Positions 9,526 to 46,562 of a DNA stretch of 64,000 nucleotides are shown one piece after another. The position numbers and the translations under genes are program-made. The notes below the pieces were generated by a model. That model was not told where the DNA came from. It made no database searches and was given only the letters and a program-made list of their open reading frames with translations. Source of the DNA: Acephala macrosclerotiorum (Eukaryota; Ascomycota; Leotiomycetes; Helotiales; Mollisiaceae); NCBI GenBank assembly GCA_014904845.1, contig MU119354.1, forward strand, positions 62,001 to 126,000. The letters are read 5' to 3'. Numbering within the stretch: position 1 is the stretch's first letter; each line of letters starts with the position of its first letter.

Positions 9526-11409
9526 ATGTCAGAATCAGCCCGCGACCTTCTTACCTCTCGAATCGCAAACTTGAACCCATTCTCAAAATCTAAACGCGAA
9601 GACGTCGAAGATGAACTCGGAGAGGCAACTGACGTCGCTACCGTTGCTGGCGGCGGCCACAGCGCTCGAGCAACCGGCATCACCAAGCATCAGCTCAAAG
9701 TCAGCCACGCCCTGAGTACGTGAAATTCTGCCCTTTGATTGAGGAGATATTCAGAGCCGAGCTCCTCGCGAGTAATACGAACTCGGCTCCTCAGCTCCTC
9801 GACTCCCAAATCATACTTTAGACCCCGTACTGATCTATCTACAGAATCCTTCCTCGTCGACCAAAAGATCCTCTCTAAGCACGACGTCGACCTCGATGAG
9901 CCCGATCATGTGACACCAGCATTGAACGCTCTCCTCAACAAGCCGCATATCGAAGTCCCCCTCTCTCTCACAGACAGATCTCATCCCTTGCCTGAATACT
10001 TCATCAGTTCAAGCCACAATACTTATCTTGTCGCTCATCAGTTGATCGGTAGCTCCTCAGCTGAGGCATATGAGACGGCGCTCAATGCTGGCTCAAGATG
10101 CGTGGAAATCGATGCCTGGGACAACGATGAAGATGCTGGGGAGCCAAAAGTCACTCATGGATACACGCTCGTGTCACATATCAGCTTCCGTTCCGTTTGC
10201 GAGACCATTCGGGATTGCGTTGACAAAGAAGCTGCTGAGGCTGTCAGTCAACCAGGTCAACGAGCAGCTCCTATTCTGTTGTCCCTTGAGAATCATTGCA
10301 GTGCCAAAGGACAGATGCGTCTTGTTAAGATCATGAAGGAGGTCTGGGGTGATCGTCTTTTGAGTGCGGCTGTAAGACAGGAAGGCCATGATGAGCAAGA
10401 CGGAGGGAAACATGTTCGGCTTGAAGAACTCGGGTCGAAAATCGCGGTTATTGTTGAGTATCACATTGTCGGTGAGGATTCTGATGATAACAACAGCTCA
10501 GATGATGAGGAGGAAGAGAAGCAAGGCAAGAGAGCGTACAAAGAGAAGAAGAAAACCGCCCCCACGGGTATCATAATTCCTGAGCTCGCTGAGCTGGGTG
10601 TGTATGCTCAGTCAGTCAAACCGAGCGATAATTCGTGGTACGAAGAACCTGCGCTGAAGAACGGCCCTCATCACCATCTCATCAACGTCTCAGAGTCTGG
10701 ACTGGCATCTCACATAGCCACCGCAAGTGACAAGATCGGTCGTCACAACGCCCATCACCTCATGCGTGTCTTCCCCAAAGGGACTCGAATCTCATCCAAA
10801 AACCTAAACCCCGTCCCTTTCTGGGGCATCGGAGCCCAGATCTGTGCTCTGAACTGGCAAACCTTCGGTGCCGGTATGCAGCTCAACGAAGCACTCTTCA
10901 GCGGCACGGATGGCTACGTCCTAAAGCCTGACGCTCTCCGCCACGGAGGCAGCGGTAAGCTCAGCACAGGAAGAAAGAAGAAGCTCCGTCTCCACGTCGC
11001 AGGCGCATCCGACGTCCCAGTTCCTGAAGGACTCGAAGGAGATGAAATCAAACCCTACGTAACCTGCATGCTCATCCACCCAGACAACGTCGACAAGGCT
11101 CCTCCAAAACGCAAGACTGAACCATATAAACACCACCATCTTGGCTTCCTGCATCGAGGTGAGAATCCACCGCCTACGGATCCGATTTGGGATGAGACGT
11201 TAGAGTGGGAGTATGTGGAGAATGAGTTGGTGTTTTTGAGAATTTTGATTAAGAGTGATGAGAGCTTTGCTGCGAATCCTACTTGTGCAGTCGCTGCTGT
11301 TAGACTTTCGTATGCACCGGAGGCTTGGAGGTTTATTCGCATGTTGGACTTGAAGGGGAGGGAGACGAAGTGCTCGTTACTTGTCAGGTTTGAGGTTGTG
11401 GATGCGTAA
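9526..11409 (+). CDS. phosphoinositide-specific phospholipase C
   Basis: Exons 9526-9715 and 9845-11409 give a 584-residue protein; splicing through the 129-bp intron joins HAL to KSFLVDQK and avoids a spurious in-frame leader. The X box contains SSHNTYL with catalytic His near residue 121 and VTHGYTL with the second His near 168. The Y box contains PFWGIGAQICALNWQTFGAG, and a C2-like region follows (KLRLHVAGASDVP, GDEIKPYVTCMLI). The enzyme hydrolyses PtdIns(4,5)P2 to diacylglycerol and IP3 at the membrane, dependent on Ca2+. There is no N-terminal PH domain, so it is a compact fungal delta-like form. A very acidic linker (GEDSDDNNSSDDEEEEKQ) separates X and Y, the place where an autoinhibitory linker sits in PLCs. 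Confidence 0.95.
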
Positions 11410-17799: not shown

Positions 17800-20700
17800 C
17801 TAATGTGCTAGTTCTTTTCGCTTCTTCATTACTGGCCCCTCCCCGGTTACATCCTCAGAAATATCCTCTATAACTCTCTTTCCGAGGCTGTTAGGTCCGA
17901 TGTGCTTGTGTGCGTCATATGCCGTCGTTGGGATTGAACTCTTGTCTCTATCAAGTACCGCTGGAAGTTGAAAATCGGGAATCTCCTTTGTTGAATAGGT
18001 CTCTTGGATTGCTTTATCAAGAACAAGCCGCAGATTCCTGTGACTTTCCGCTGGTACGAGTGTGGAGTAGCTTTTCTCGAGGGTTAATGATTTTGGCAAT
18101 CGTGTGATCTTTTCTTCTCGAAATTCGCCATTGGCACGCAGCGTTTGTAGCATGACTGAGCCACTGTCAAGATCTTGTGTTAGGGCAGACATCTGCAATT
18201 GCCCCTGAAAAGACGTGAACTCGGGCATTCCTGAGACTTGAATGGCTGTCCCTTCGACCCCTGGCTCTGTCTCGGGACGCGGGAAGGAATCTTGAGTGCC
18301 CAACACCGTCTGTGGATCCTGCAAAGTTCTCGACGGTGAACTTCCGTCGGTGATAGCAGACAAAAATGAATCAAGATGGCTGGTAATATTCAGGAATACA
18401 GGTTCTCCTTCCCTCTCATGACTTGCTATGAGGCCGTACAGAAAGTTTCCACAATTCGAGAACCTCATGTGGGTGAGGGGATAGTCGCAGATGTTGATTA
18501 AGGCTGCGTCTATGTCCCGTCAGCAAAGTACTCGTTTCCGTCTTCGAAACAACATGTTACCGTTACTTGAAACTCGCCACAGACTAGTTGAAGTTTTCAT
18601 CGAAATAGCTAAGATTAGCTTGTTTGGATGAAAAATCACAGTATGTGACGCGTTACCATCCAGACGAATACCTGTAGTCGCAAGTAGCTGGAATTCTGGG
18701 GAAAGTGGGTCATTCCTCCTGTGAACATCTAAAACCCATACTGCGTTGAACCTGAGAGCGTCTGGTGCGCTCTCACCTTTAATGACTGCGAGGTATTGCT
18801 CGTCGGGACTAAAGTAGCATCGGAACCATTTATGGCAGGAATTGGGAGAACTGTTTTGTGAATTCGTACTGATGCCCGAATTGTAGAAGTACTTTGGTTT
18901 ATTAGGATCATTTAGCATCCTTTCATCCCAGGCATTAAAGCGGCACCGAGGACCGAACAGGAGGTGCTTCAAAGCTTTAGCTTGATGAGGCGAGTCCTGA
19001 ACCTGAATGATAACCCCCATAATAAAGGCTAATCGCAAGGAGGAAGACAAAGCAACCGGAAACCGAAATTCTCGTGGCCGGTTCAAAGTGAGCTTGGTGC
19101 TCAGGACTTTCTCGGCGGGCAGGAAGAAGCGATTCTTTGTTTTAAGTTTCATGGATTCCAAACACCAGATTTGATAGAAGACAACCCAGTTTGTTGGATG
19201 TGGAAGGTCCAGTATCGCAGAGGATCCGTGTATTGCCCAGGCGTTCGCCTTGGAAGGACTAAAGTAAGTACCTCGATAAGCATGCATCCCCTTCATTAGT
19301 CAAGAAAGGGGGGGGAATGGCAAAGACTCACTCAGCAGGCCATACCCGAACAACACCCACTTCTTTTCCGTTCGAAGACACTTGTGAGGCAATTAAGATT
19401 GTGCCAGCGTCTGCATTAGAAGAGAGCCAGTTGATTTTCGCCGCGGTGGTGCCGACCCAGAATTCGCAATCCGTGAGTGCGTTTGTACTCGGAGACCAGA
19501 TCTCATTGGGTTCAGAGACTAGAATATGGCCCCACTTCTGGTTCAGGTGGGAGAGGTTTCGACCTAGCCTTTGCAGAGTTTTGGCCAAGTGGACCAGTTC
19601 CGCTCTTTGCGCCTCCATGGCCTTCCTAGCAGCTCCCTTAATTATTTCTGATAGATCAAACAGTGAAGGTGCGATTTCGAAAGTCCACGCTGCCTCTATC
19701 CACAGAGTTACCAGCCGTTTCTCTGTAGTAAGCATGAGCAGAAGTTGCGAAAGATCTTTGCAACCTTTACTCGAGAGAAACTTTCTGCCCGATTTATCTC
19801 CAAGTCCCTCCTCAAAACCTTGACGCGCGTGAAGCGGCCAGAAAGCTACAACGTAAGAGAGAAAACAATATCGCATGATGACAGATTCTCTGTTGCAAGT
19901 GATCGAAGAGTCTCCGCTTAGTGGCTCATGGGGAACCTCATTCAGGAGATACTCCAAGCACAAATTGGCAGTTGAACAATGTGCTGCACTCAATGAAACG
20001 GAGAACACGGACTCTTGAAGCAGTGTTAAGTATTGTGCCACTGAGAGATGGATGAATCGCACCGTATGGTCATGGCGAATCTCAACTAAAGGGCCACAAA
20101 GTTGCATCAACGATTCCTCGAAAGAATCCATGAAGTCCTCGCTAGTAGAATGTCGGTGAGGTTGAACGGCTAATGCTGTCTCCATCAATGTTGTTGTCCA
20201 AGGCCGTTGCGCTGCTGCCAGCCATCCGAACACCTTGCGAACCTTTTCATACTGACTTTCTGGAATCCTTTTTCCAAGATCGACCAATATCTTCCCAAAT
20301 AGATTGTCGAGGCCTTTGAAAGACTTCTCCTCTTCGACAATTTCTACACGCTCGCTTGGCGTTAGAAATGGGGACTGGAGATACTTGATTATCAGGTCTG
20401 CCCAAAGAACAATTGAATCGGAACGTTTTGCCAGCCTATTTACGAGGTCGTCGATGCTGTCTAGGCCATAAAGTTTGCCTAGCTTTCCTCTTTGTAGCAG
20501 TGAAGCGATTCCAGGTCTGACAATAGCATGTATCTCAGTGATATTTGTGTTTGATTTCAACTTCATATCAAAGGGCTTTTGACCAATGATCGCCGAAAGC
20601 GATAAGTGAGTGCGAGAGAGCAGGACAATTTTGCAACTCGTGCCTTCCGCACATTTGCGGAGAGAGATCAGGAACTCCTCCCACTCTAAACACTCATCGA

Positions 20701-22478
20701 GGCCATCAAATATGAAGTACGAGCCGTTGAGTCGCTGAAGGTATATCCGTATCAAGGACTCCAACGACTGAGGAGACGCCGACATTTGTCCTTGGGTTTC
20801 GTCTTTCATCATCAAAGCTGCTAGGTCAATAGAGGTGGGATTATTCTTTTGCGAGAAGAGAAGTTGAGCTGCAATCGATTGGAGTGCTGTAAATCGAGGA
20901 TATCTATCTCCTTGTTGTTGATCAAAGTAGAAGTATGCCGTAGGAGTGATGATGCTCGGGTCGGATGAGGGACCAGATACTCCAGTTCTTCGACGCAAGT
21001 CTTCAATGATTCGGGTCGACAGTATGGTTTTGCCGTATCCGGGTTTTGCTTTTGGATCAAGACTCAGCCACACCAGGGCAGTTGATCTCGAATTAGAGCC
21101 AACTCACCTGAAATAACGAGAACATTCTTGGCAAAAACACTTCCTTGCGTAGGGTATGGAACTTCCTGTTCTAGCCAGGACTTATACTCGGGTTGGTCAA
21201 GGATCCATAGCCACGTGTCTGGCAGACGTTTTCCTTTCGCTGCTTCGTAGGGGCCTGTCCAGTTGGGAGCCCCAATCCATTTCTGTAGACTTTGCAGCTT
21301 GTTGTCTGTTGTAGATGTTAGTTGATGTCTTTGAGAAGTTCTAGAAATATGGAATATCAAGTTTGAGCCTAACCCATGATTTTTCTCTGCTCAAATGTCT
21401 GTTGTTCCATGAGAAGATCTCTATGCTGCGAGTTCTTGACACGTTCTAAATCCATTGCATTGAAGTGCATAATTAGCTCCTCAGAGTACACATTTTCGAG
21501 ACCTGCGTCGAAGTCTTGTTGGTGTCGCTTCAAGCGTCCTAATATCTCTGAGAACCTTTCGTCAAATGGTGTCCAAGAGAGATCCCAAATGATGGTAGCT
21601 TTGTACCACAGCCCTGTAATTAATCATTAGCGAATGCTGCTTTTCAAGTTGAGATGCTGAGCACCAACCACGCCGTCTCTTGGAGAATAGTCGGCACGCA
21701 TCATGGCAGAACTGCAAGATGTCCACGTAGACAAAAGACAGCGCCTTGAAAAGGCATTCATGTGTTTCACGCCAAGCCGAGTGTTTGATTCGGCTATTAA
21801 TGATTTTGATCTGGGTAGAGTAATTTGGCAGATTGCGTCCAAATTCTTGGAACATCTCCGCTAGTTTCTCGAAAAAGCCAGTGAAGTGGCTACATAACTG
21901 GCGTGGCATCAGCTGAACCCCTCAAGTTGTGTCAAAAGTCATACCTGGAACACGAGTCGAACAGCTCCCCAGGCTATTCCAGACCATTCGGGATGCGTGG
22001 AGACAAAAATGTTGACAACTTCGAAGAAAGGATCCATGGATTTCCTGAAATGGTCAAGCTTTTTGCATGCTTCCAGGAGACGAGAGGTCCGGTGTGAGTT
22101 CAATTGAACAATATGCTGCTCAATCGAAGCAACCATGTCCTCAGCATTGTCTAATGTCTGAAATATTTCTCTGTCCTCATTAGGGAGCTCATCGTAAAAA
22201 CGCTTCGCAGCGGTCGCAAATACCGCTTCCGCTGACCGATACCTAAGGTTGTGAGCCTAAGTGAAATTCCCATTGGGAGATATTAGATAACTTGCCGGTC
22301 TGTCATCGAGTCCTTCTTCAATACCGCCTTTATCACGGCATGTTCTCTTCGATAATTTCCTAGAGGAAGTGGAGTTGGAGGATCGAGGAACTGATGTTCA
22401 CGGGGCTGGGCGTCAGCGTTCCTTTTTCGGGCTGTCGTGTTACGCGCCACGTTTTGGGCTTTCTTTTAGGCTCACGAC
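17800..22478 (-). CDS. NACHT-type NOD-like receptor with DUF7708 N-terminus and propeller-like C-terminus
   Basis: Exons: 22296 upward (open to 22478), 21945-22242, 21669-21897, 21374-21613, 21108-21305, 19332-21048, 18567-19258 and 17800-18509. The phases close and give at least 1364 residues from the first in-frame ATG (22306). The true start may lie upstream, because the open frame extends to 22478 through REHQFLDPPTPLPLGNYRRE without an ATG. The N-terminal domain is the DUF7708 helical type (FVSTHPEWSGIAWGAVRLVF, FVYVDILQFCHDACRLF). The NACHT part has Walker A AKPGYGKT near residue 330 and Walker B YFIFDGLDEC near 440, then helical and winged-helix-like parts. From about residue 840 short repeats (AKINWLSSN, CYFSPDEQYLAVIKG, HTVIFHPNKLILAISM) suggest a degenerate WD-like propeller. 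Such cytosolic STAND ATPases are linked to non-self recognition and cell death. Intron 1 has a GC donor. Confidence 0.85.
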
Positions 22479-26184: not shown

Positions 26185-28516
26185 TCAAATGAAAGCCCCA
26201 CCCCTCCCGTCATCAAACGGCGGAGGTGGCGGTAACCCCCTTCCTCTTCCATCCCCTCCACCACCCTGACCAGATTGGAACTTCTTCCTCTGCTGCTCAT
26301 AATATCTCTCCTCCTCATCCCTCCCAATTGCCATCCCGGCTTCTTCCTCCTTCTCCGTCTCGAGCGTATCCCTCCTCGGCGGCGTCAAATCCCTCCTCTC
26401 TCCACCTCGCCTCTCCGGACTCCCCCTTGCCTGTCTCGCCTTATCCTCCATATACCTCACATAATCGTCATCCTCTTCTTCATCATCATACGTTTCTAAC
26501 GGTACCGGTTGACGCCCCGTATTCGTATCCCCTTTCACTAGGCCTAGTCTCTCTTCTTCGGTAGCGCCTTTGACTGTTGCGCCGCGACTTCCGCGCCGGG
26601 AACTTAGGCCTTTACGTATCATGGGACTTCGAGATTGGACTTGATGCTCATCTTGTGCTGGGACTGAAGCTTGTGATTGTCCTTTCCTAAACACATTCTG
26701 GAACGAAAATTGTCTTCTCGCGGAATGAGGCGGGGGAGTTGGTCCTACAGATGGATGGAGAGACGAGCCTCGGCTTCCGGTGCGTTGGGAGTTGGTATCA
26801 TCTACTATCGTAATGTGGCGTTCTCGTTGCTCTTGTTCGGTTTTCAATTGTGATGGTAGTCCGTATCTGTGGTCTCCGCCATCGGGCTCGTGGCCGTAGT
26901 ATGCTGTGTCGCCACCGTCTACGCCGCCTTTGTAGGTTGGGATTGAGATCTCGGTTAGAGGGACGGGGTGCATGGGGCTTTGAACGCGAGGCTCGTGTGT
27001 GCTGCGGCGAGAGCCTATTATAGATTTCGCGCGGTCGAAGAAGCCCATCGTGGATGCGGTTGTTGGACGATCGTCTTCATGATCAGAGTCCGAATCTGAA
27101 GGGAAGCGTGACATGCCGAGAGGAGGGTGTAGCTGTGGTGAATAGATGGTAGTATGGGGAGGGTTCTCGAAAGGTGGGAAAGGAGTTGTGTTTCCTCGAG
27201 ATCGTACGCTGTTTGTGCCGATCGTTGTTCTGCGTCTTCGTAGCCCGTCCCATTCGATCTGTTCGTTTTCTCCAATGGGTTCGAGATCTGCTTGTTTCTC
27301 TTCGTGTAACCTCCTCGCTTCTTGCATCTCCATCTTTTGTCTCGTTTGTGAAAATCGTCTAACAATAGCTGCTGTGCCACGAATAGCATCTGCTTTTGGT
27401 TCCGATTCTGGCTGCTCTTGCTCGGCAATGGTTCGAACTTGGTCCAGATCTCCAGCGAAAACAGCGGTATCTGGTACATCCTTGGCGGATTTGGAAAGTT
27501 GGAGGAGGACGACTCCAGCACAGATAACGAAGAACCCCATGACAACGGTAATGATGGATGTGACTGTTCCCTTGAACCCTCGAAACAGAATAGCGGATGT
27601 GATGATCGTGCAACTCGTGAAGTAGACGTAATATGTAGGTGTAACCAATGCGGCATTGAATAAGTTTAGAGCTTTCTGTTTCGGGTTAGTAGAGTCCTTT
27701 TGCCGTGAGAGATTGACTTACATTGAGATATATGATCTCTGTTACAAGTGTCGTAATAACGAAAACAAACAATACGTAGAGGAACCACTGGTTGAATTGT
27801 GGGGTTCCTCCAATCTGAGCCACAATAGCAGCTCCAAGACCTTGTGTAGCCACTACACTTAGACCTCCAATGAAGCTGCAAATCGACAGGTATACCAGCA
27901 TCGACTTCTTTCCGTATCGTGGTCCCACCCAGATTGCTGTGAAGGCGGCGCCGATAATGATTATTCCCGCGTATACCAGAAACCCAGGCGAAATAACAAA
28001 GTGCTGCATCTCCTGGATATTCGCAGCTGATGATTCCGACGGCGCATTCATAACGATAACCACGGATCCTATAATGCATAGAAAGCATCCAACCTTGCCC
28101 ACCATGCTCAATCTCTCCTTGAGAAATATCGCAGATAGAATAGTCGTGATAACCACCGACAAGGCTCCCAACGGTGTAACCAAAATCGCATCCACGAAAG
28201 CATATGCCACAAAATTGCATATCTCCCCAATAATCATAAGCGTCATGCCCGTCCACCAGTATGCATTCTTCAGGTATCCATATCCCTCTCCAGCTACTTC
28301 ATCATATTTCTCGTTGGCCTTCAACAATCCCATTTTCTTCAACACAAACGATACCCCAATGAACACACCCGACGCAATTGCTAACGATATGCCAATCGCC
28401 TTGTATATAGGAGGTCTCGACGCCGTTGCTGGATTCGTCGTACTCGTGCCATTCGTAGAATTCGTTCTCGCATACAGTAAATTTGCAGCCAACAGCGCAT
28501 GCCCTACGTGATCCAT
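26185..28516 (-). CDS. NIPA-type magnesium transporter
   Basis: Exons 27722-28516 and 26185-27675 (46-bp intron) encode 761 residues. I chose the ATG at 28516 (context AAGATGG); an upstream in-frame Met at 28585 is possible. The first 350 residues are the DMT-superfamily NIPA domain with about nine helices: SLAIASGVFIGVSFVLKKMG, WWTGMTLMIIGEICNFVAY, FVDAILVTPLGALSVVITTI, FLKERLSMVGKVGCFLCIIG, LGAAIVAQIGGTPQFNQWFL and ALNLFNAALVTPTYYVYFTS. Members move Mg2+ across the plasma or endosomal membrane. A hydrophilic cytosolic tail of about 400 residues follows. It is rich in Arg, Ser, Pro and acidic runs and ends in a Gly/Pro-rich segment, so it is probably disordered and phosphorylated. Such long tails are usual in filamentous fungi. 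Confidence 0.92.
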
Positions 28517-30845
28517 CTTGGCGAATTGTACGGCGGAGGACCGCCTGCGAGAAAGAGAAATTCGTGAAGTGTCGCAACCGATCAACAGCGCTCACCAAAC
28601 TCTTATCAAGGCCGTAAATTTGTTTCGTAGGGAACTCGGAGGATAGCAGTAGCGTGTGGAGTGGAGATTTCGTTAAGGGGACGTTGCTGCTATCATGAGG
28701 GACGGCATACGCATAAGATTTGCAAAGGTATAGGAGCAAGCTGTAGACGATATTGACAGGCAAAGTGTGCTGATGTCTAATTCAGACGTGCGATCGGACG
28801 CTGGGTTTGTGAAGTATCAGAGTCGCGGGAGGCTGGTTGCTTTGAAACGGTTGTTGTGGGAGAAGATGGTGTTGTTTTGATTCCGAGGTCACCCTTGACA
28901 GGCAAACACTGCAGAGGAATCGTTGATTGAGCAGAATACACAGTTAAGAATTATGTTCAAGAATCTGCGAATATTGGTAGGTAAAATGTCCAAGGCTCTG
29001 TCTGGTGCAGGCGGAAGCAAGTTCTGTGCTCTCGATGTTGAAGATGGGAAATGGACTGCAGGTTGTGATGGTGGTTGGTTCTGGGGTCCTTGTCATCCGG
29101 TTGGCTGGCGACGCAAACGAGTCAACGAGGCTGTGCAAAATGCAGCAGCACTCAGAAACGCAGGGTGATTTTTGGGCGCAATTGAAGGTGGCGTATTGAG
29201 CAGCTGGTTCGATGGACGAGCTGAGAAGTGCAGATAAAGACACGGGATGTTGGGGGCCGTGGAGGCGCAGAACATGTAAGTGAGGCTATAGAAAGGGAAC
29301 TCGATATCCCGTTCGCGATACACACGATTGCTGCTGTTCCAGGTCTCTCTGTACCATCTGCGATGTGCAAAGTGATGAAATGCCGTCAGGAGACACCGCA
29401 TTTCCTGGTATTTACCGACGAATGCCAAAACATGGCGATCTTCACATCTTGGTTTGCTGCACCTAAAAATATATGGCATCCATGATTTGCGGAGAATAGC
29501 CTAAACCAGAACCTCAAAACCCGTCCCAGCAACGACAACCTATCGCCGCCCTCCACCTCACGCGAGTTCTCCATACAAAGGCATCTTGGACCCTCTCTCA
29601 GCCAGAGATCATCACGCAGTTCCAGCATTTTGAGCCCCTGATTACTGTGCTCTATTCGGCTCAATTACCCAACCGCCACTCGTTGTTTCTGCTGGAACAC
29701 TCATTGTTCGAGAAACTATTCTTACCCCAACATTCACATTCATCCACGCGCCTGAGCACGATGAACATGACATCTCGCGCATCCCCCTCATGTTTCGACA
29801 TCTGCTCGGGGATTATCAAACCCGTTCTCTGGCGCGTGGCTTTGCATATCCCATCTACCAGTGACATTCTCTCTCACTTTGATAATCGCTGAGTTGGTGA
29901 TCGGTACGAGTAGTGAGTGGGTGGCTGGCATGACGACGACACGATTGTCTCACACCCCACTGGGGCGACTTCTTTGCGAGGTGGGATGATAGATAGAGTT
30001 ATCGAATCCTTTCGGACGGAAATGATAAGGCTCGAGGTGAACCTTTGCGATTATTCGTGTTCGTACCGTACAGAACGCCTCCAGCTCCTTGGCGAGGCAG
30101 TCTCGATGAGCCTCATGCACCTTATTCGCATCGATTAATCCTTTGCAACGCGTCCTTTGGAGTTTTTCGAGAGCTAGTTGCGGGGAAGCGAGCATAAGCA
30201 TGTTTTTCATCCTTTCGTCTCACTATTCGCCTTGTACTTTCTCGTCGCTGCCAATGGGCTGTTCATGGTCCTCCTTCCTTCGAAGCTGACGCACGTGACC
30301 CTCACACTTTGCGAGCCTCGTGTCCAAGTCGGATCTCTTCCATTAAATAATCATGTACGCTTCGTGATTTGAATTGCTCATTTTGACAGCTGATAGGGCT
30401 GCTGAAAATCTTTATGAAATGAACTGCCTCTTAGCGTTGTCATTTGGTCCAACGTATGAGGAGAAGCTTAGCCGAAGCTACTTCCCCACATCAAACCCGA
30501 AACATCCGGTACTCGAAGACATCTGATTTCGATGTCTTGAAGCAAGTTCAGCCTTGCATGTGCTTTTGAATCAAGCTAGACATGTCCTCTTTGCTGGTAT
30601 CACGTGCCACTGTTGTCTCAAGGTCCCGTTGATAAAGACAACACTAACAATATCTTTGCTTCATACTTATCACTATATACATCACCTTCTCCTCTGGACT
30701 ACCATCCACCACCTGTAGCAAAACAATTATCCCGAAAATCCTCCGTTCCATTGACTAACAACGATTTTCCCAGGCACAGAAACCTCCATATTTACTTAAA
30801 TAGCAAATTCGCCATCATCCAATCAGCGTCTCAAGACGCACAAAA
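28517..30845. other. long intergenic stretch
   Basis: 5' region of the NIPA gene (a leader intron ending in TCTCGCAG near 28552 is possible), then about 2 kb in which I find no coding gene or repeat. Open frames at 28923-29664 and 29917-30372 lack family resemblance. Confidence 0.45.
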
Positions 30846-30967
30846 GGTTCTGTGGTGTAATGGGTATGTCAACACTTCACAATCATTCAAGACAACGACT
30901 AATCAGAACCCAGTTAGCACATCGGATTTTGATTCCGGGGATTTGGGTTCAATTCCCAGCAGAACCT
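30846..30967 (+). tRNA. tRNA-Gln(UUG) with a 50-nt insertion in the D-loop
   Basis: Removing 30864-30913 leaves a perfect 72-nt cloverleaf. Acceptor GGTTCTG pairs with CAGAACC and the discriminator is T. D-stem GTGT pairs with GCAC, D-loop AATGGTTA. Anticodon stem TCGGA pairs with TCCGG around loop TTTTGAT (anticodon TTG). The T-arm is TTGGG-TTCAATT-CCCAG. The A box TGGTGTAATGG (30853-30863) ends exactly where the insertion starts and the B box GGTTCAATTCC (30946-30956) is intact, so RNA polymerase III promotion should survive. The insertion starts GTATGT, has CGACTAAT near its end and stops at CCCAG: spliceosomal-type signals at a position where nuclear tRNA introns are not expected (the usual site is 37/38). 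The anticodon loop itself has no intron. Confidence 0.85.
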
Positions 30968-31798
30968 CAGCTGTTCTTTCTTTTTTTGAACTTTTTTTTG
31001 CGCCTCTGTTGTTTGTGTTGTTATCAAGCGAGTACGCGAGATAAATAGCCGCGAGGCGAGACGGAGTGGGGCGCCCGCGGCTTAAGGGGAGGTGGCGTGA
31101 ATCACTCCTTTCTTTGAAGTTTAGTCGTTCTTTTTGAAAAGCTCGCAAATCGATAGATGGCCTTTGGCCGTCAGTCCTTCTTTCTTTGTATCTTGATCAA
31201 GACTCATGTATCTGCCGATCCATCAATTCTTGCTCTGCCTTCTCAAGCCTACCTCAGCCTTCTAGAGCTTACAGACTTTTGTACGATTGAAGCCGCAGCC
31301 TAGCCTGATTCATAATGCTGCCAGAATTCTCAACGATGTGGGGTTGAATGAATAGCATCAGGCTGTCGCTGATTACTTCGCCTCTTTTCTCGATGTTGTG
31401 TATAGTTGGTTCCAAAGGATGCTTACGTTCTCATGTTACACGACACTCGGATTGGTCATGGAAGTGCGAGTGCTTGAAGGAGAGCCGTTTATCGGCCAGC
31501 ATCTCGTGGTTGCGCCTGCTGAAAGGCTTCATTCTCGGCCCCCATTCCAATAACGACAGGAGGAAGCTTCAGCCCTACCTCCCTTCGCCTGTCCTCTCTT
31601 TGGCATGTATAGCTCTGCCACAACATTTGAGTCTAAGTTTAGAGATTTATGAGGATTCAGCCTCGTTCTTCTCCGTTTCAAATATCTCCTCATCTCATTA
31701 TTCCAACCCTTTTTCAACAATAAAGATGTAGCCCAGCCGCCGATCTTTATGATGATTTCCTCGAACTTCCTTCGAATTCCGTCCAGCAGGGTTTCACG
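30968..31798. other. intergenic stretch
   Basis: After the Pol III terminators no gene is seen. It should contain the promoter and leader of the lectin gene. Confidence 0.45.
30977..30999 (+). terminator. RNA polymerase III T-run terminators
   Basis: Runs of seven T (30981-30987) and eight T (30992-30999) lie 14-32 nt after the tRNA-Gln discriminator base, where Pol III termination is expected. Confidence 0.7.
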
Positions 31799-36606: not shown

Positions 36607-36728
36607 TAGTCTAATCAGGACTCGAACCTGAATTTCACTCATGCCGTCATGGGAAGACGGCGGGTGCTCTGAGTGTCTAGGAAGGGTGCGCCTTTTATAA
36701 GTGTGTATTACCATTATACGACCAGACC
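36607..36728 (-). tRNA. tRNA-like gene with a 58-nt anticodon loop, identity unclear
   Basis: On the minus strand an almost complete cloverleaf can be drawn. Acceptor GGTCTGG pairs with TTAGACT (three G-T pairs) and the discriminator is A. D-arm GTAT-AATGGTA-ATAC is perfect. Anticodon stem CACTT pairs with GAGTG, the variable loop is AAAT and the T-arm is TCAGG-TTCGAGT-CCTGA. The B box GGTTCGAGTCC is consensus, and a run of eight T follows the 3' end. Between the anticodon-stem strands lie 58 nt (36641-36698) instead of 7, so an intron of about 51 nt is implied. That segment contains its own hairpin, GCCGTC-TTCCCAT-GACGGC, which itself looks like an anticodon arm (CCC). I cannot assign the amino acid. 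It could be a functional intron-bearing tRNA, a pseudogene or a tRNA-derived repeat. Confidence 0.45.
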
Positions 36729-43232: not shown

Positions 43233-45485
43233 TCGATGAGAAGTCTAAACGAAGATTTTACTACTAGGTTGATCAACGTCTTCAGGTGCTTCGTGCTTCG
43301 ATATTTCATCGACATGAAAGCCCTCATCCCCAGCATGCTATAAACACCGAAAGAAATGTCTTGGAAGAAGGCTCATATTGGTGGGGTCGATAGCGATTAT
43401 TCATATTGAAAGACCTCAGCCGAGACTTTCAGGCTTACCGTATATCGTATTCTCCCTCGCAAGCCTGAACCAAAAAAGGAGCAATTGCCTGGCATGGGAT
43501 CGATTCATATGGAATTTCGAGTCAAAGAAAACTACACTGATCAGAATGCTATTCTCGAAGCATTGTCGAAGCATGGTACGACAACGGGTGCTACCCCGCA
43601 TTGAGCCCTGCAAAGTCAGCCCTTGGCGGGAAAAGCGTCAAACGAGGAAGTCATAGCGACAGATTCGCGGTCAGTAAAGCATATGATATGTATCTCTTTG
43701 GAGACAACGCGCAGATTCGCGCCATGGCCAGAGATGCTATGTTTGGATTGCGCAGGAGAACGACCCATTACAGCATGCCCAGACACGCTGACCAAATTCG
43801 GCTTCCTAGTGCATCTGTCGGTGAAGTTGTCTGTGTTTTTCCTTGTCTCTCGATGATGTCCTGGTCGACATAGAAGGAAGTAATCCATATTCACTCCGCA
43901 CAATCCGCAACACCCATATTTGTGCAGCTTTATGAGATCGTAACGTATGGGGCAGTGACCCGCGTGAGAAGAAACATGGCTTTCCAGCTATAGGCGTAAC
44001 GCGAATGATTTTCGTCTCGAATTCTAACGCAACTTGAAGAATCCGCACGCAGGCAGTGTAGAGAGGATATGTTTTATTCGTTGTTCGTCGGAGCTCGTCG
44101 GTGCTGGCTGGTGCTCGTTGTGGCTTTCCTGTTTGGTATGGCGGATCGCGTTCTACGGAGCTGCATGTATTCGGAAGGGGTAGAACGGTAACTATGGATG
44201 TTCGCTTGCCTCGGTAGAAGAACTGAATTGTGCTTCAAGTCTTGATATTAGTCTTAAATGATGTGGCGGAACAGTGACACGCTCTCAGCCGGAGAAATAA
44301 ATGGCCGATTTTCGTCCTCGAGAACACCAAAAAAGTCCTCCACTGAATTATTTATTTCGTAACTACTCACACCTTGATATTCATGAAACTTCCAAGAATA
44401 CTTTTCAAGAAGCTAATAAAAGACTTCGCAAAAAGAAATTGCAAATTTTCTTAACTAGTTCTAGTGAAATTCGCAGATTCGTGTGAATTTGCGCACAGGA
44501 CGGATATCGGCCACTTATTTCTCCTGCTGAGAGACACGTACCTGCCATCCTTATTAGTCTGTGGCGAGGACAGGGTGATCAATTTCGTAGTTGAGATGAG
44601 GCTCACATCGCAGATTCTGTACAAATACGAATAAGATCTGATGCTCGAGATAACGGCGCAGCGATAAAGCACGGGTACGCTTAGCCTTTTCTAGAATAGT
44701 GCTTGATCCGTGCCACTCTCTATTGGGAATAGCTTCTAGATAGCTTCTCACAATTAACATACGAGGCGAATCAATTTCGTCTCCGGCGCTCGCCAATTTT
44801 CGAGCTTTGAATTTCACTCTAAATAGAATCACGGCGTCTAATGAAATGCTTCAAAATTTGGATGAATAATAGAATATACTTCGAAGAGTCCATTAGCCAA
44901 GTTTTAATCCTTTTCAGCTTTATTTGATTGTGGAGGGTCTAGTTGTTAATGTGACAGATTTCTCGCCAAATCTAGCCCAAGCGCCGGAGACGAAATCGAT
45001 TCGCTTCGATAGCTTCACATCTATCTGTCTAGCAACTCAAACTCGAATGCTTTGAAATGACTTTGAAGTCAGCAATCAGTACAAGTGTACTTCAAGGCCT
45101 TGATCTCCGATCCTTCTTCATTCCTTGCAAGTTTCCTCTAGTTTCAAACGAGAGCATCCCGCACGAATTTTCTGACTCCAAAGTCGACCCTGGGCAAGAC
45201 GTCACCTCAGGACAAAAGAGTACATGCTATGCTTCACCTTACACCTTACTATATACAATCATTAGTCTTCAGAGATTCTGAGGCTCCAAGAGCAATTCGA
45301 AGCTTTTTGAATCTCCAGAGTCCTATCACACCTTAGCCTCGGCAACTGTTCCACATCTTAGGCAGCACTGCCACACTTCCCCTCCTTCCCCGCAGCGTCA
45401 CCAATACTTATGGAGGAAAAGTACGTCTAAAATTCTAAGCTTTCAGGTACATCAAAAGTCTTTGGAACGACAGGAAATTCTCACA
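43233..45485. other. long intergenic stretch
   Basis: About 2.2 kb with overlapping short open frames around 43378-44050 that show no domain. One member of a degenerate repeat pair lies at 44581-44655. Confidence 0.45.
44581..44655. repeat. degenerate direct repeat, member 1
   Basis: This 75-nt stretch matches 47045-47119 at about 62 of 75 positions counted by eye; shared blocks include CAGATTCTGT and CGAATAAGATCT. No function recognised. Confidence 0.6.
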
Positions 45486-46562
45486 ATGACTCATGCATCA
45501 TTCTCCAATCTTCCCCCCGAAATCCGCCAAGAGATATGGCGATTGTCTTTCGAGCCTCGTGTTCTTTGCCTACATATCCATGCCCGCGAGCTCGATTATA
45601 ATTCTCGCAAAAATTTGGCTGTCTCATTCACTTGCACCGTATTGGATTCGAGAAGCGGCCAGACTCCAGACGACATTTTCGCAGAACGCTCTGAAGCAAC
45701 CCCTCAAGTGCCAAAGGACACTAGAGAAATTAATTCCAAATCACTAGGACCGACCTCTCTTGGCCCTGTCCACTTGTACATTTGTTGGGAGAGCCGTGCA
45801 GTGGCATTGAGAAGATACGAGCTCGCATTTACGGAAGCAGAGGATCTTGAGCAAGGGAAGCAGCGTCTCCGCTCAAGACAGGATGTTGCTTTAAAAGACT
45901 GGGACAGTCGAAACTCATGGCAGAAGGGAATATGGGTGGACTTCGAACGCGACATTGTTCTTTTAGATCTCCTCCGGCAGCGTCGACATGATATCCACAT
46001 CCCAGTACGAACGATGACAACTCTGTGGTTCTTCAAAATATATGCTCGGCGCGAAGTACAGAAGATCAGGAGATTTGCTATTGGAGGGAATTGGCTCTGT
46101 GAAAAAGCCATTTGGGGGGAATTTTACAAGACGCTCACTCAACCTGGACCGAACCCGAATTGTATTCGAGCTTTCAAGAACTTGAGGGAGCTTCTTGTTG
46201 ATGATAGCTTTCGAATTTATAAGGCAAAGGCAGTAACTCGAGAAGCTAGTGAGTCTCACCCTCTCAAAGCAAAATTCTGCTTTGCTCTTTCTTTTGGAGT
46301 CTTCGATAGCCGCATATTCCTAGGACATGCTTCTCGACTCCTTGACTTCAATGAAACAAGAGTACTAACTCCAAAAGCCATGTCAACAGGCGAGAGGATT
46401 GGAGTGAATGCGATCGGAGAGCGAGAGGTTGTCAAGGACAAGGTTCAGGGCTGGATTGGTAGCTTGAACGATGGCAAGCCTATCTGGCAGCAGGTGCCAG
46501 AGGTCAAAGTTGTTCGGTGGGACGAGTGGCACATGGACAATATGCTGGCCTTAGCTACATGA
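45486..46562 (+). CDS. 2EXR domain protein, 358 residues
   Basis: Single exon; I start at the ATG at 45486 because the longer reading upstream has no ATG. The N-terminus FSNLPPEIRQEIWRLSFEPR is the signature of the fungal 2EXR domain (two EXR-like motifs), a large expanded family of unknown biochemical function. Later motifs typical of these proteins are CWESRAVALRRYELAF, VDFERDIVLLDLL and FKNLRELLVDD. There is no signal peptide or membrane helix, so it is probably intracellular. Codon use and frame are intact. 2EXR genes often occur in variable, strain-specific regions, in keeping with its surroundings here. Confidence 0.88.
   Translation: MTHASFSNLPPEIRQEIWRLSFEPRVLCLHIHARELDYNSRKNLAVSFTCTVLDSRSGQTPDDIFAERSEATPQVPKDTREINSKSLGPTSLGPVHLYICWESRAVALRRYELAFTEAEDLEQGKQRLRSRQDVALKDWDSRNSWQKGIWVDFERDIVLLDLLRQRRHDIHIPVRTMTTLWFFKIYARREVQKIRRFAIGGNWLCEKAIWGEFYKTLTQPGPNPNCIRAFKNLRELLVDDSFRIYKAKAVTREASESHPLKAKFCFALSFGVFDSRIFLGHASRLLDFNETRVLTPKAMSTGERIGVNAIGEREVVKDKVQGWIGSLNDGKPIWQQVPEVKVVRWDEWHMDNMLALAT

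What the first reader, a model, noticed from the sequence alone, without database searches (positions are those of the whole stretch)
30846..30967. tRNA-Gln(UUG) split in its D-loop by a 50-nt segment with spliceosomal intron signals
The two halves form a flawless tRNA-Gln(UUG) when 30864-30913 is removed. The insertion begins GTATGT and ends CAG, with a CTAAT branch-like motif about 12 nt before the end. It sits directly after the A box, in a position not used by nuclear tRNA introns (normally 37/38). A and B boxes and the T-run terminator are intact, suggesting a transcribed gene. mRNA-type introns are known in another Pol III transcript, the U6 snRNA of some fungi, so a spliceosome-processed tRNA is conceivable. 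Alternatives: a split recognised by the tRNA endonuclease, or a dead gene.
Basis: partly seen in the sequence, partly recalled or inferred. Interest (0 to 1): 0.92.

Follow-up and report, generated by a model that had tools for sequence, protein, structure and literature searches.

The report
Messenger-type introns inside fungal tRNA genes
In this fungal genome a glutamine tRNA gene, like 33 other tRNA genes found here, is interrupted by a short stretch with the signals of an ordinary messenger-RNA intron, so the cell likely needs its mRNA-splicing machinery to make basic tRNAs.

Summary
Window 30846-30863 + 30914-30967 form a good tRNA-Gln(UUG); the 50 nt between them begin GTATGT, carry CTAAT with its A 11 nt before the end, and end CAG. 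The assembly (69.7 Mb, fungal) gave only one other tRNA-Gln(UUG) gene, split at the same D-loop place by a different GT..CTGAC..CAG insert. Genome searches gave 34 tRNA genes (20 anticodon types, one uncertain) with 45 such inserts of 47-59 nt in many positions, 25 of the genes also with an anticodon-loop intron. Paralogous empty sites (Thr, Trp, Glu, Leu, Phe) fit GT..AG ends. Signals match mRNA introns of this genome and an intron in one U6 copy. Bulge-helix-bulge pairing, read by the tRNA endonuclease, is no commoner than chance. Every gene found for Lys, Phe, Ala(AGC) and Gln(UUG) is split. Best reading: U2-type spliceosomal introns in Pol III tRNA genes, which the spliceosome would have to remove; not tested on RNA. 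Ten full-text searches listed no report of spliceosomal introns in tRNA genes. Species not identified.

The parts
30789..30804 (+). TATA-like upstream element TATTTACTTAAATAGC, 57 nt before the gene
   Evidence: 5 mismatches to TATAGATTTAAATAAG, a weak match; at <=4 mismatches the element precedes 19 of 20 intact, 17 of 18 genes with only an anticodon-loop intron and 26 of 31 split tRNA genes tested, background 0.95%
30846..30863 (+). exon 1 of tRNA-Gln(UUG): acceptor 5' strand, D-stem 5' strand, D loop to GG; contains the A box 30853-30863
30864..30913 (+). 50-nt predicted spliceosomal intron: 5' splice site GTATGT 30864-30869, branch-like CTAAT 30899-30903 (A at 30902), 3' splice site CAG 30911-30913
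30914..30967 (+). exon 2: rest of D arm, anticodon arm (TTG), variable loop, T arm with B box 30946-30956, acceptor 3' strand and base 73
30981..30987 (+). T7 run, expected Pol III terminator
   Evidence: B box plus T5 pattern
27676..27721 (-). reference mRNA intron in a NIPA-type magnesium-transporter gene: GTAAGT..CTAAC..CAG, 46 nt
   Evidence: homologous protein runs across it

Best explanation
The 50-nt insert in the D loop of this tRNA-Gln(UUG) gene carries the 5' splice site, branch site and 3' splice site motifs of this fungus's mRNA introns and is predicted to be cut out by the spliceosome, as are 44 similar inserts in 33 other tRNA genes of the same genome. Shown: exon pieces that join to cloverleaves; insert ends that fit GT..AG when set by paralogs without the insert; signals and lengths like mRNA introns and a U6 intron of the same genome; no bulge-helix-bulge above chance; no intact gene found for Gln(UUG), both Lys anticodons, Phe and Ala(AGC). 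Inferred: RNA polymerase III, probably positioned by an upstream TATA-like box, makes the precursor; the U2-type spliceosome removes the GT..AG introns; the tRNA endonuclease and ligase remove any anticodon-loop intron from the same precursor, in unknown order; end trimming and CCA addition finish the tRNA. How such precursors recruit the spliceosome is unknown; splicing by intron definition is the likely route.
For: Cloverleaf after removal: 34 of 100 distinct candidate regions need removal of 1 or 2 GT..AG segments; random control 0 of 396 stretches. Signals in 45 introns: GTAAGC 12, GTAAGT 9, GTATGT 8, others 16; CAG 22, TAG 17, AAG 6; CTRAY near the 3' end in 37 of 45 (200 shuffles: mean 6.6, maximum 15), YTRAY in 43 of 45, its A 9-14 nt from the intron end in 42 of the 43 and 16 in one; lengths 47-59. 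Same-genome mRNA introns (6 of 6 read: GT..CTAAY..YAG, 44-51 nt; ends chosen by eye as GT..AG between exon matches) and the U6 intron (GTAAGT..CTAAT..CAG, 52 nt) look alike. Empty sites: Thr, Trp, Glu and Leu paralogs put 9 inserts at GT..AG within 1-4 equivalent registers; two Phe copies with the same exons around the sites carry different introns at different places, each the other's empty site. At shared sites intron sequences differ while exons are kept: 4 Lys(CUU) and 4 Ala(AGC) genes with two GT..AG introns each; the Gln(UUG) pair differs at 3 of 72 exon bases, two of them a compensatory 7-66 change G-C to A-U. Need: patterns with up to 3 mismatches find no intact Gln(UUG), Lys(CUU), Lys(UUU) or Ala(AGC), and both Phe copies are split. 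Against endonuclease: central BHB helix of >=3 of 4 pairs in 3 of 45 GT..AG introns (6.3 expected) against 23 of 43 anticodon-loop introns tested; 0 of 47 of the latter are GT..AG.
Against: No RNA data. No related genome could be searched, so conservation outside this assembly is untested. 5S rRNA (30 of 30 matches above cut-off are 120 nt) and the one SRP RNA match show no intron, so not all Pol III genes are affected. Some splice contexts are hard: a 6-nt first exon in Ser(GCU), 9-nt middle exons in Lys(CUU), and interrupted A or B boxes. ARAGORN scores alone do not single out GT..AG: it was at the top in 7 of 24 regions tried (23 single-intron genes and the uncounted L090); in 16 others 1 to 115 other deletions scored higher, and one (L129) had its true start outside the tested range. 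The upstream element of the window gene is a weak match, and the other Gln copy has a poor donor, GTAATT. For the 11 genes with two introns a loose donor and branch motif was part of the search, so their 22 introns are not independent evidence for those motifs. Introns of the two Gln copies are slightly more alike than shuffles (3.8% of 500 reach the score).
Confidence: 0.9

Rival explanations
1. The inserts are non-canonical introns cut by the tRNA splicing endonuclease (as in archaea, Cyanidioschyzon or nucleomorphs), their GT..AG ends being incidental.
For: 25 of the 34 split genes also carry an anticodon-loop intron by ARAGORN, so the precursor likely meets the endonuclease; ectopic tRNA introns of that kind exist elsewhere (passages of PMC4090602).
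Against: BHB central helix in 3 of 45, below the 6.3 expected; branch motif at a fixed distance; 0 of 47 anticodon-loop introns are GT..AG. The 45 were selected as GT..AG, but empty-site paralogs give ends that fit GT..AG without that assumption.
Confidence: 0.05
2. The split genes are pseudogenes interrupted by random or mobile insertions; working tRNAs come from other genes.
For: Thr(AGU), Trp, Leu(AAG), Glu(CUC), Gln(CUG) and Arg(UCG) also have a copy without a GT..AG insert; the assembly may lack genes and the inventory is incomplete.
Against: No intact Gln(UUG), Lys, Phe or Ala(AGC) gene found; exons kept and compensated while introns diverge; same upstream element as intact genes.
Confidence: 0.04
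3. The introns arose as copies of a selfish intron-like element (introner) that still needs the spliceosome; this concerns origin and is compatible with the best explanation.
For: Many introns of one length class; presence and absence among paralogs.
Against: The 45 introns show only 3 pairs with short 12-16 nt matches at E<=0.01.
Confidence: 0.1
4. Assembly or contamination artefact.
For: Draft of 778 contigs.
Against: 45 different introns on many contigs with clean exon joins and mRNA-type signals.
Confidence: 0.01

Closest known systems
mRNA-type intron in U6 snRNA of fungi (Schizosaccharomyces pombe and others)
   Same: U2-type signals inside a short structured RNA made by Pol III (polymerase recalled); here too a U6 copy with (L121) and one without (L120) an intron coexist.
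   Different: U6 is a spliceosome component with one gene family; here the hosts are tRNA genes of many isotypes with up to two such introns plus an anticodon-loop intron. Literature seen as passages and reference entries of PMC5832005.
Spliceosomal introns in U3 snoRNA and in 18S rRNA genes of fungi
   Same: GT..AG introns with RCTRAY branch in non-coding RNA genes; presence and absence among paralogs (passages of PMC5832005). An mRNA intron in 18S rDNA of fungi was seen only as a reference title.
   Different: Different RNA class. PMC5832005 calls U3 and U6 the only small structured RNAs known to be often interrupted.
Canonical eukaryotic tRNA introns (position 37/38, SEN endonuclease and Trl1)
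   Same: Interrupt tRNA genes of this same genome, often the same genes.
   Different: Here GT..AG, 47-59 nt, at other positions, without BHB-like pairing above chance.
Ectopic introns of archaea, Cyanidioschyzon merolae and cryptomonad nucleomorphs
   Same: Several introns per tRNA gene, at D, anticodon and T-arm positions (passages of PMC4090602, PMC3978253).
   Different: Those are attributed to the tRNA endonuclease or are of unknown mechanism, 3-24 nt in Guillardia; these carry spliceosomal signals.

Membership tests
U2-type spliceosomal intron | GT at the 5' end within a GTANGY-like consensus, AG at the 3' end | tested here: met
   GT..AG in 45 of 45 by selection; A3 in 40 and G5 in 42 of 45, not selected for in the 23 single-intron genes, loosely selected in the 22 introns of two-intron genes
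U2-type spliceosomal intron | CTRAY branch site at short distance from the 3' end | tested here: met
   CTRAY 37 of 45, YTRAY 43 of 45; shuffles mean 6.6 for CTRAY
U2-type spliceosomal intron | Resembles mRNA introns of the same genome | tested here: met
   6 mRNA introns and 1 U6 intron; 44 of 45 tRNA introns score above the 99th percentile of window GT..AG segments with a model trained on themselves; with it 4 of 6 mRNA introns are in the top 0.31%, the other two at 1.8% and 5.5%
U2-type spliceosomal intron | Precise removal from RNA through a lariat | not testable with these tools
   no RNA data
SEN-type tRNA intron | Position 37/38 | tested here: not met
   junctions at 6/7, 9/10, D arm, 25/26, border of anticodon stem and loop (30/31 in the count), variable loop, T arm
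SEN-type or archaeal BHB intron | Bulge-helix-bulge at the exon-intron borders | tested here: not met
   3 of 45, 6.3 expected, against 23 of 43 anticodon-loop introns
Group I or group II intron | Large catalytic core | tested here: not met
   47-59 nt is far too short (size limits recalled); no Rfam match at gathering score in the window
Introner-derived intron | Near-identical copies in many genes | tested here: not met
   only 3 short matches among 45; protein-coding introns of the genome not compared
Functional nuclear tRNA gene | Full cloverleaf, Pol III promoter elements and T-run terminator | tested here: met
   transcription itself not testable

The most novel reading that the evidence does not exclude
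Translation in this fungus depends directly on the mRNA spliceosome: Pol III tRNA precursors carry up to two U2-type introns besides the classic anticodon-loop intron, so one precursor passes through two unrelated splicing machines, and no lysine or phenylalanine tRNA can be made without the spliceosome. This would be a further class of eukaryotic tRNA intron and would show that tRNA genes can gain ordinary spliceosomal introns.
Probability: 0.85. Interest if true: 0.97.

Novelty: new variant of a known kind. Interest (0 to 1): 0.95.

Why it matters
Reviews treat eukaryotic tRNA splicing as spliceosome-independent (PMC13149111, passages) and eukaryotic tRNA genes as limited to one intron (PMC8450103, passages). 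If spliced as predicted, these genes break both rules, tie tRNA supply to spliceosome capacity, show that the U2 spliceosome works on Pol III precursors with 6-9 nt exons, and open intron gain in structured RNA to direct test. In practice such genes can escape tRNA finders: the window gene is missed by ARAGORN and lies below the Rfam cut-off.

Tried and rejected
Unconstrained deletion scoring by ARAGORN does not by itself identify GT..AG, so empty-site paralogs were used. In one search, 16 pairings were tried: 9 inserts (L085, L100 D arm, L110 both, L035, L083, L099, L108, L109) came out with GT..AG in the class of least mismatch; the T-arm insert of L100 came out two bases off GT..AG with the same joined product; with Trp L017 as reference a spurious upstream placement came first and GT..AG second; the Phe pair, U6, Gln(CUG) and Arg(UCG) were not resolved there (the other copy's intron or an indel lies in the context, or the reference is too diverged). 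Phe and U6 were then read from the sequences.

Regions where ARAGORN offered a non-consensus GT..AG removal (L090, L091, L103, L104 twice, L115) were not counted as split. Boundaries of L035, L047 and L129 were set from paralogs or tRNA consensus rather than from the top ARAGORN row. L050 is counted but its identity, Ala(CGC), is uncertain. By hand against ARAGORN's label: L073 as Leu(CAG) (ARAGORN: SeC) and L042 as Lys(CUU) (ARAGORN: Stop(tta), no anticodon-loop intron). L083 is labelled Glu(CTC) in my script, but ARAGORN reads Glu(UUC), which I follow here; it was compared with the Glu(CUC) copy L087 (2 mismatches).

The tRNA inventory is not complete: RF00005 scored 63 of 2302 candidates; the B-box pattern listing was cut short at its end, 16 of its listed distinct places were not fetched because by eye they did not look like T arms, and the window's second tRNA-like element was not among the 100 regions. 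No region was labelled Asp, Cys or Tyr. The share of split genes, 34 of 74 (20 intact, 20 with only an anticodon-loop intron after dropping L104 twice and keeping the doubtful L090 and L091, 34 split), is a rough figure. Intact copies were sought only for Gln(UUG), Lys, Phe and Ala(AGC), at up to 3 mismatches.

Species identification failed: homologs carry no organism names. Fungal SRP RNA shows a fungus; 2EXR and NPHP3_N domains suggest a filamentous ascomycete (their range is recalled). Literature: ten full-text searches listed no paper on spliceosomal introns in nuclear tRNA genes, judged from titles, starts of abstracts and passages of eight papers; subscription papers and bioRxiv are mostly not held. 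The Canzler U6 paper was not held.

Full report
WHAT IS THERE. The window gene reads GGTTCTG TG GTG TAATGG | GTATGT...CTAAT...CAG | TTAGCAC ATCGGATTTTGATTCCGG GGAT TTGGGTTCAATTCCCAG CAGAACC T. Joined, the exons are a tRNA-Gln(UUG) by ARAGORN, score 118.0. A T7 run follows at 30981-30987, and a TATA-like element lies 57 nt upstream, a weak match. The window is part of a 69.7 Mb, 778-contig assembly. It is fungal: Fungi_SRP at 144.7 bits.

THE SECOND COPY. The 3' exon (26 nt, up to 3 mismatches) occurs twice in the assembly: the window and G000:C164. The C164 gene is split at the same D-loop place by a 52-nt insert GTAATT..CTGAC..CAG. The exons differ at 3 of 72 bases, two of which are a compensatory change of pair 7-66; the introns align only a little better than shuffles (3.8% of 500 reach the score). 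No intact copy was found.

THE GENOME-WIDE PATTERN. Rfam tRNA (48 matches) and a B-box plus T5 pattern (106 hits against 24 for the reversed control) gave, with the Gln and Phe copies, 100 distinct candidate regions. ARAGORN with and without removal of GT..AG segments sorts them into 20 intact genes, 22 with only an anticodon-loop intron (four doubtful), 34 that need GT..AG removal, 2 unclear and 22 with no tRNA. The 34 genes hold 45 GT..AG introns of 47-59 nt, median 52: acceptor arm 1, position 9/10 1, D arm or loop 16, position 25/26 1, border of anticodon stem and loop 2, variable loop 1, T arm 23 (counted). In 25 of the 34, ARAGORN also reads an anticodon-loop intron. Four Lys(CUU) and four Ala(AGC) genes have two GT..AG introns each, and an anticodon-loop intron besides in seven of these eight (all but L042).

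SIGNALS. 5' splice sites are GTAAGC 12, GTAAGT 9, GTATGT 8, others 16; 3' ends CAG 22, TAG 17, AAG 6; CTRAY in 37 of 45 and YTRAY in 43 of 45 near the 3' end, its A 9-14 nt from the end in 42 and 16 nt in one. For the 23 single-intron genes only GT and AG were required; for the 11 two-intron genes a loose donor and branch motif was required as well. Six introns read from protein-coding genes of this genome (one NIPA-type gene in the window, five sites in chaperonin genes) are 44-51 nt, GT..CTAAY..YAG; their ends were chosen by eye as GT..AG between exon matches. Of four U6 matches above cut-off, L121 has GTAAGT..CTAAT..CAG inside and L120 has none; the other two look decayed or were not read through.

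BOUNDARIES FROM EMPTY SITES. Paralogs without the insert give the boundaries without assuming splice sites: Thr(AGU) L005 against L085, L100, L110; Trp L018 against L035; Glu L087 against L083, L099, L108; Leu(AAG) L032 against L109. Nine inserts contain GT..AG in a class of 1 to 4 equivalent registers; a tenth (L100, T arm) was printed two bases off with the same product. Chance would give 1-4 in 256 for each site; copies of one isotype share sites, so these are five independent sites (Thr two, Trp, Glu, Leu). The two Phe genes have the same exons around the sites but different introns, one after position 15 and one after position 25, so each supplies the other's empty site.

WHY NOT THE TRNA ENDONUCLEASE. 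The central helix of a bulge-helix-bulge (at least 3 of 4 pairs) is present at 3 of 45 GT..AG introns, against 6.3 expected from shuffling; for anticodon-loop introns it is 23 of 43 tested (of 47). None of those 47 is GT..AG.

WHY NOT DEAD GENES. Junction patterns with up to 3 mismatches find no unsplit Ala(AGC) (four hits, all split copies), no unsplit Lys(CUU) (0 hits) and no unsplit Lys(UUU) (one hit, the split copy). The Phe pattern finds one exact hit, which is the second split gene, and two 3-mismatch hits that look like chance (control 5 hits). So every Lys, Phe, Ala(AGC) and Gln(UUG) gene found needs GT..AG removal. The upstream element TATAGATTTAAATAAG (up to 4 mismatches) is shared by intact genes (19 of 20), genes with only an anticodon-loop intron (17 of 18) and split genes (26 of 31 tested of 34); background 0.95% of 2000.

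MECHANISM. Shown: the anatomy above. Inferred: Pol III transcription with help of the upstream element, since many inserts interrupt the A or B box; removal by the U2-type spliceosome; separate removal of the anticodon-loop intron by the tRNA endonuclease. Not known: order, capping, and how the spliceosome is recruited.

LIMITS. No RNA evidence, no relatives, species unknown, inventory incomplete. 5S rRNA (30 of 30 above cut-off are 120 nt) and SRP RNA (one match) look unbroken. ARAGORN without constraint prefers other deletions, or missed the true one, in 17 of 24 regions tried.

LITERATURE. Passages read: eukaryotic tRNA genes are limited to one intron (PMC8450103); non-canonical tRNA introns in eukaryotes are supposed to be rare, reported in nucleomorphs and C. 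merolae (PMC4090602; PMC3978253); an upstream TATA box is important for tRNA genes of some plants and fungi (PMC3978253); [quoted passage not shown] The passages shown of PMC11782384, PMC8216456 and PMC12730881 held nothing on spliceosomal introns in tRNA genes. Ten searches listed no report of this.

VERDICT. A real and, as far as searched, unreported feature: ordinary spliceosomal-type introns in a host where I found none reported, the tRNA gene. Filed as a new variant of a known kind because the intron type itself is known; the host class and the implied dependence of tRNA supply on the spliceosome are new.

Noticed in passing
window 36607-36728 (-): Second tRNA-like element with D arm, perfect T arm, T run and a ~50-nt extra segment in the anticodon region that is not GT..AG; ARAGORN's Ala(GGC) reading is doubtful; 3' half resembles L104.
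   Followed up: partly
L080, L088 (three), L089, L104 (two), L107, L112, L114: Loci with tRNA-like ends, B box and T run but a long middle without a clear anticodon arm; maybe a family of tRNA-like Pol III RNAs or unrecognised tRNA isotypes (no region was labelled Asp, Cys or Tyr).
   Followed up: no
L121 (+, around 1529), L120 (-): U6 snRNA copies with and without an mRNA-type intron in one genome; the 3' part of the intron-bearing copy looks the more typical (recalled).
   Followed up: partly
upstream of tRNA loci, mostly 30-60 nt before the gene: Strong shared TATA-like element TATAGATTTAAATAAG; a similar box stands before U6 copies.
   Followed up: yes
L041, L103: Met-like and Glu(UUC)-like loci with GTAAG starts but no clearly fitting 3' AG; decayed or unusual introns.
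   Followed up: no
L025, L030: tRNA-Ser with anticodon ACT, unusual for AGY codons in eukaryotes (recalled).
   Followed up: no
window 9739-11409 (+), 27686-28585 (-), 45462-46562 (+), 19328-21073 (-): Ordinary genes: PI-PLC, NIPA magnesium transporter, 2EXR protein, NPHP3_N protein.
   Followed up: no
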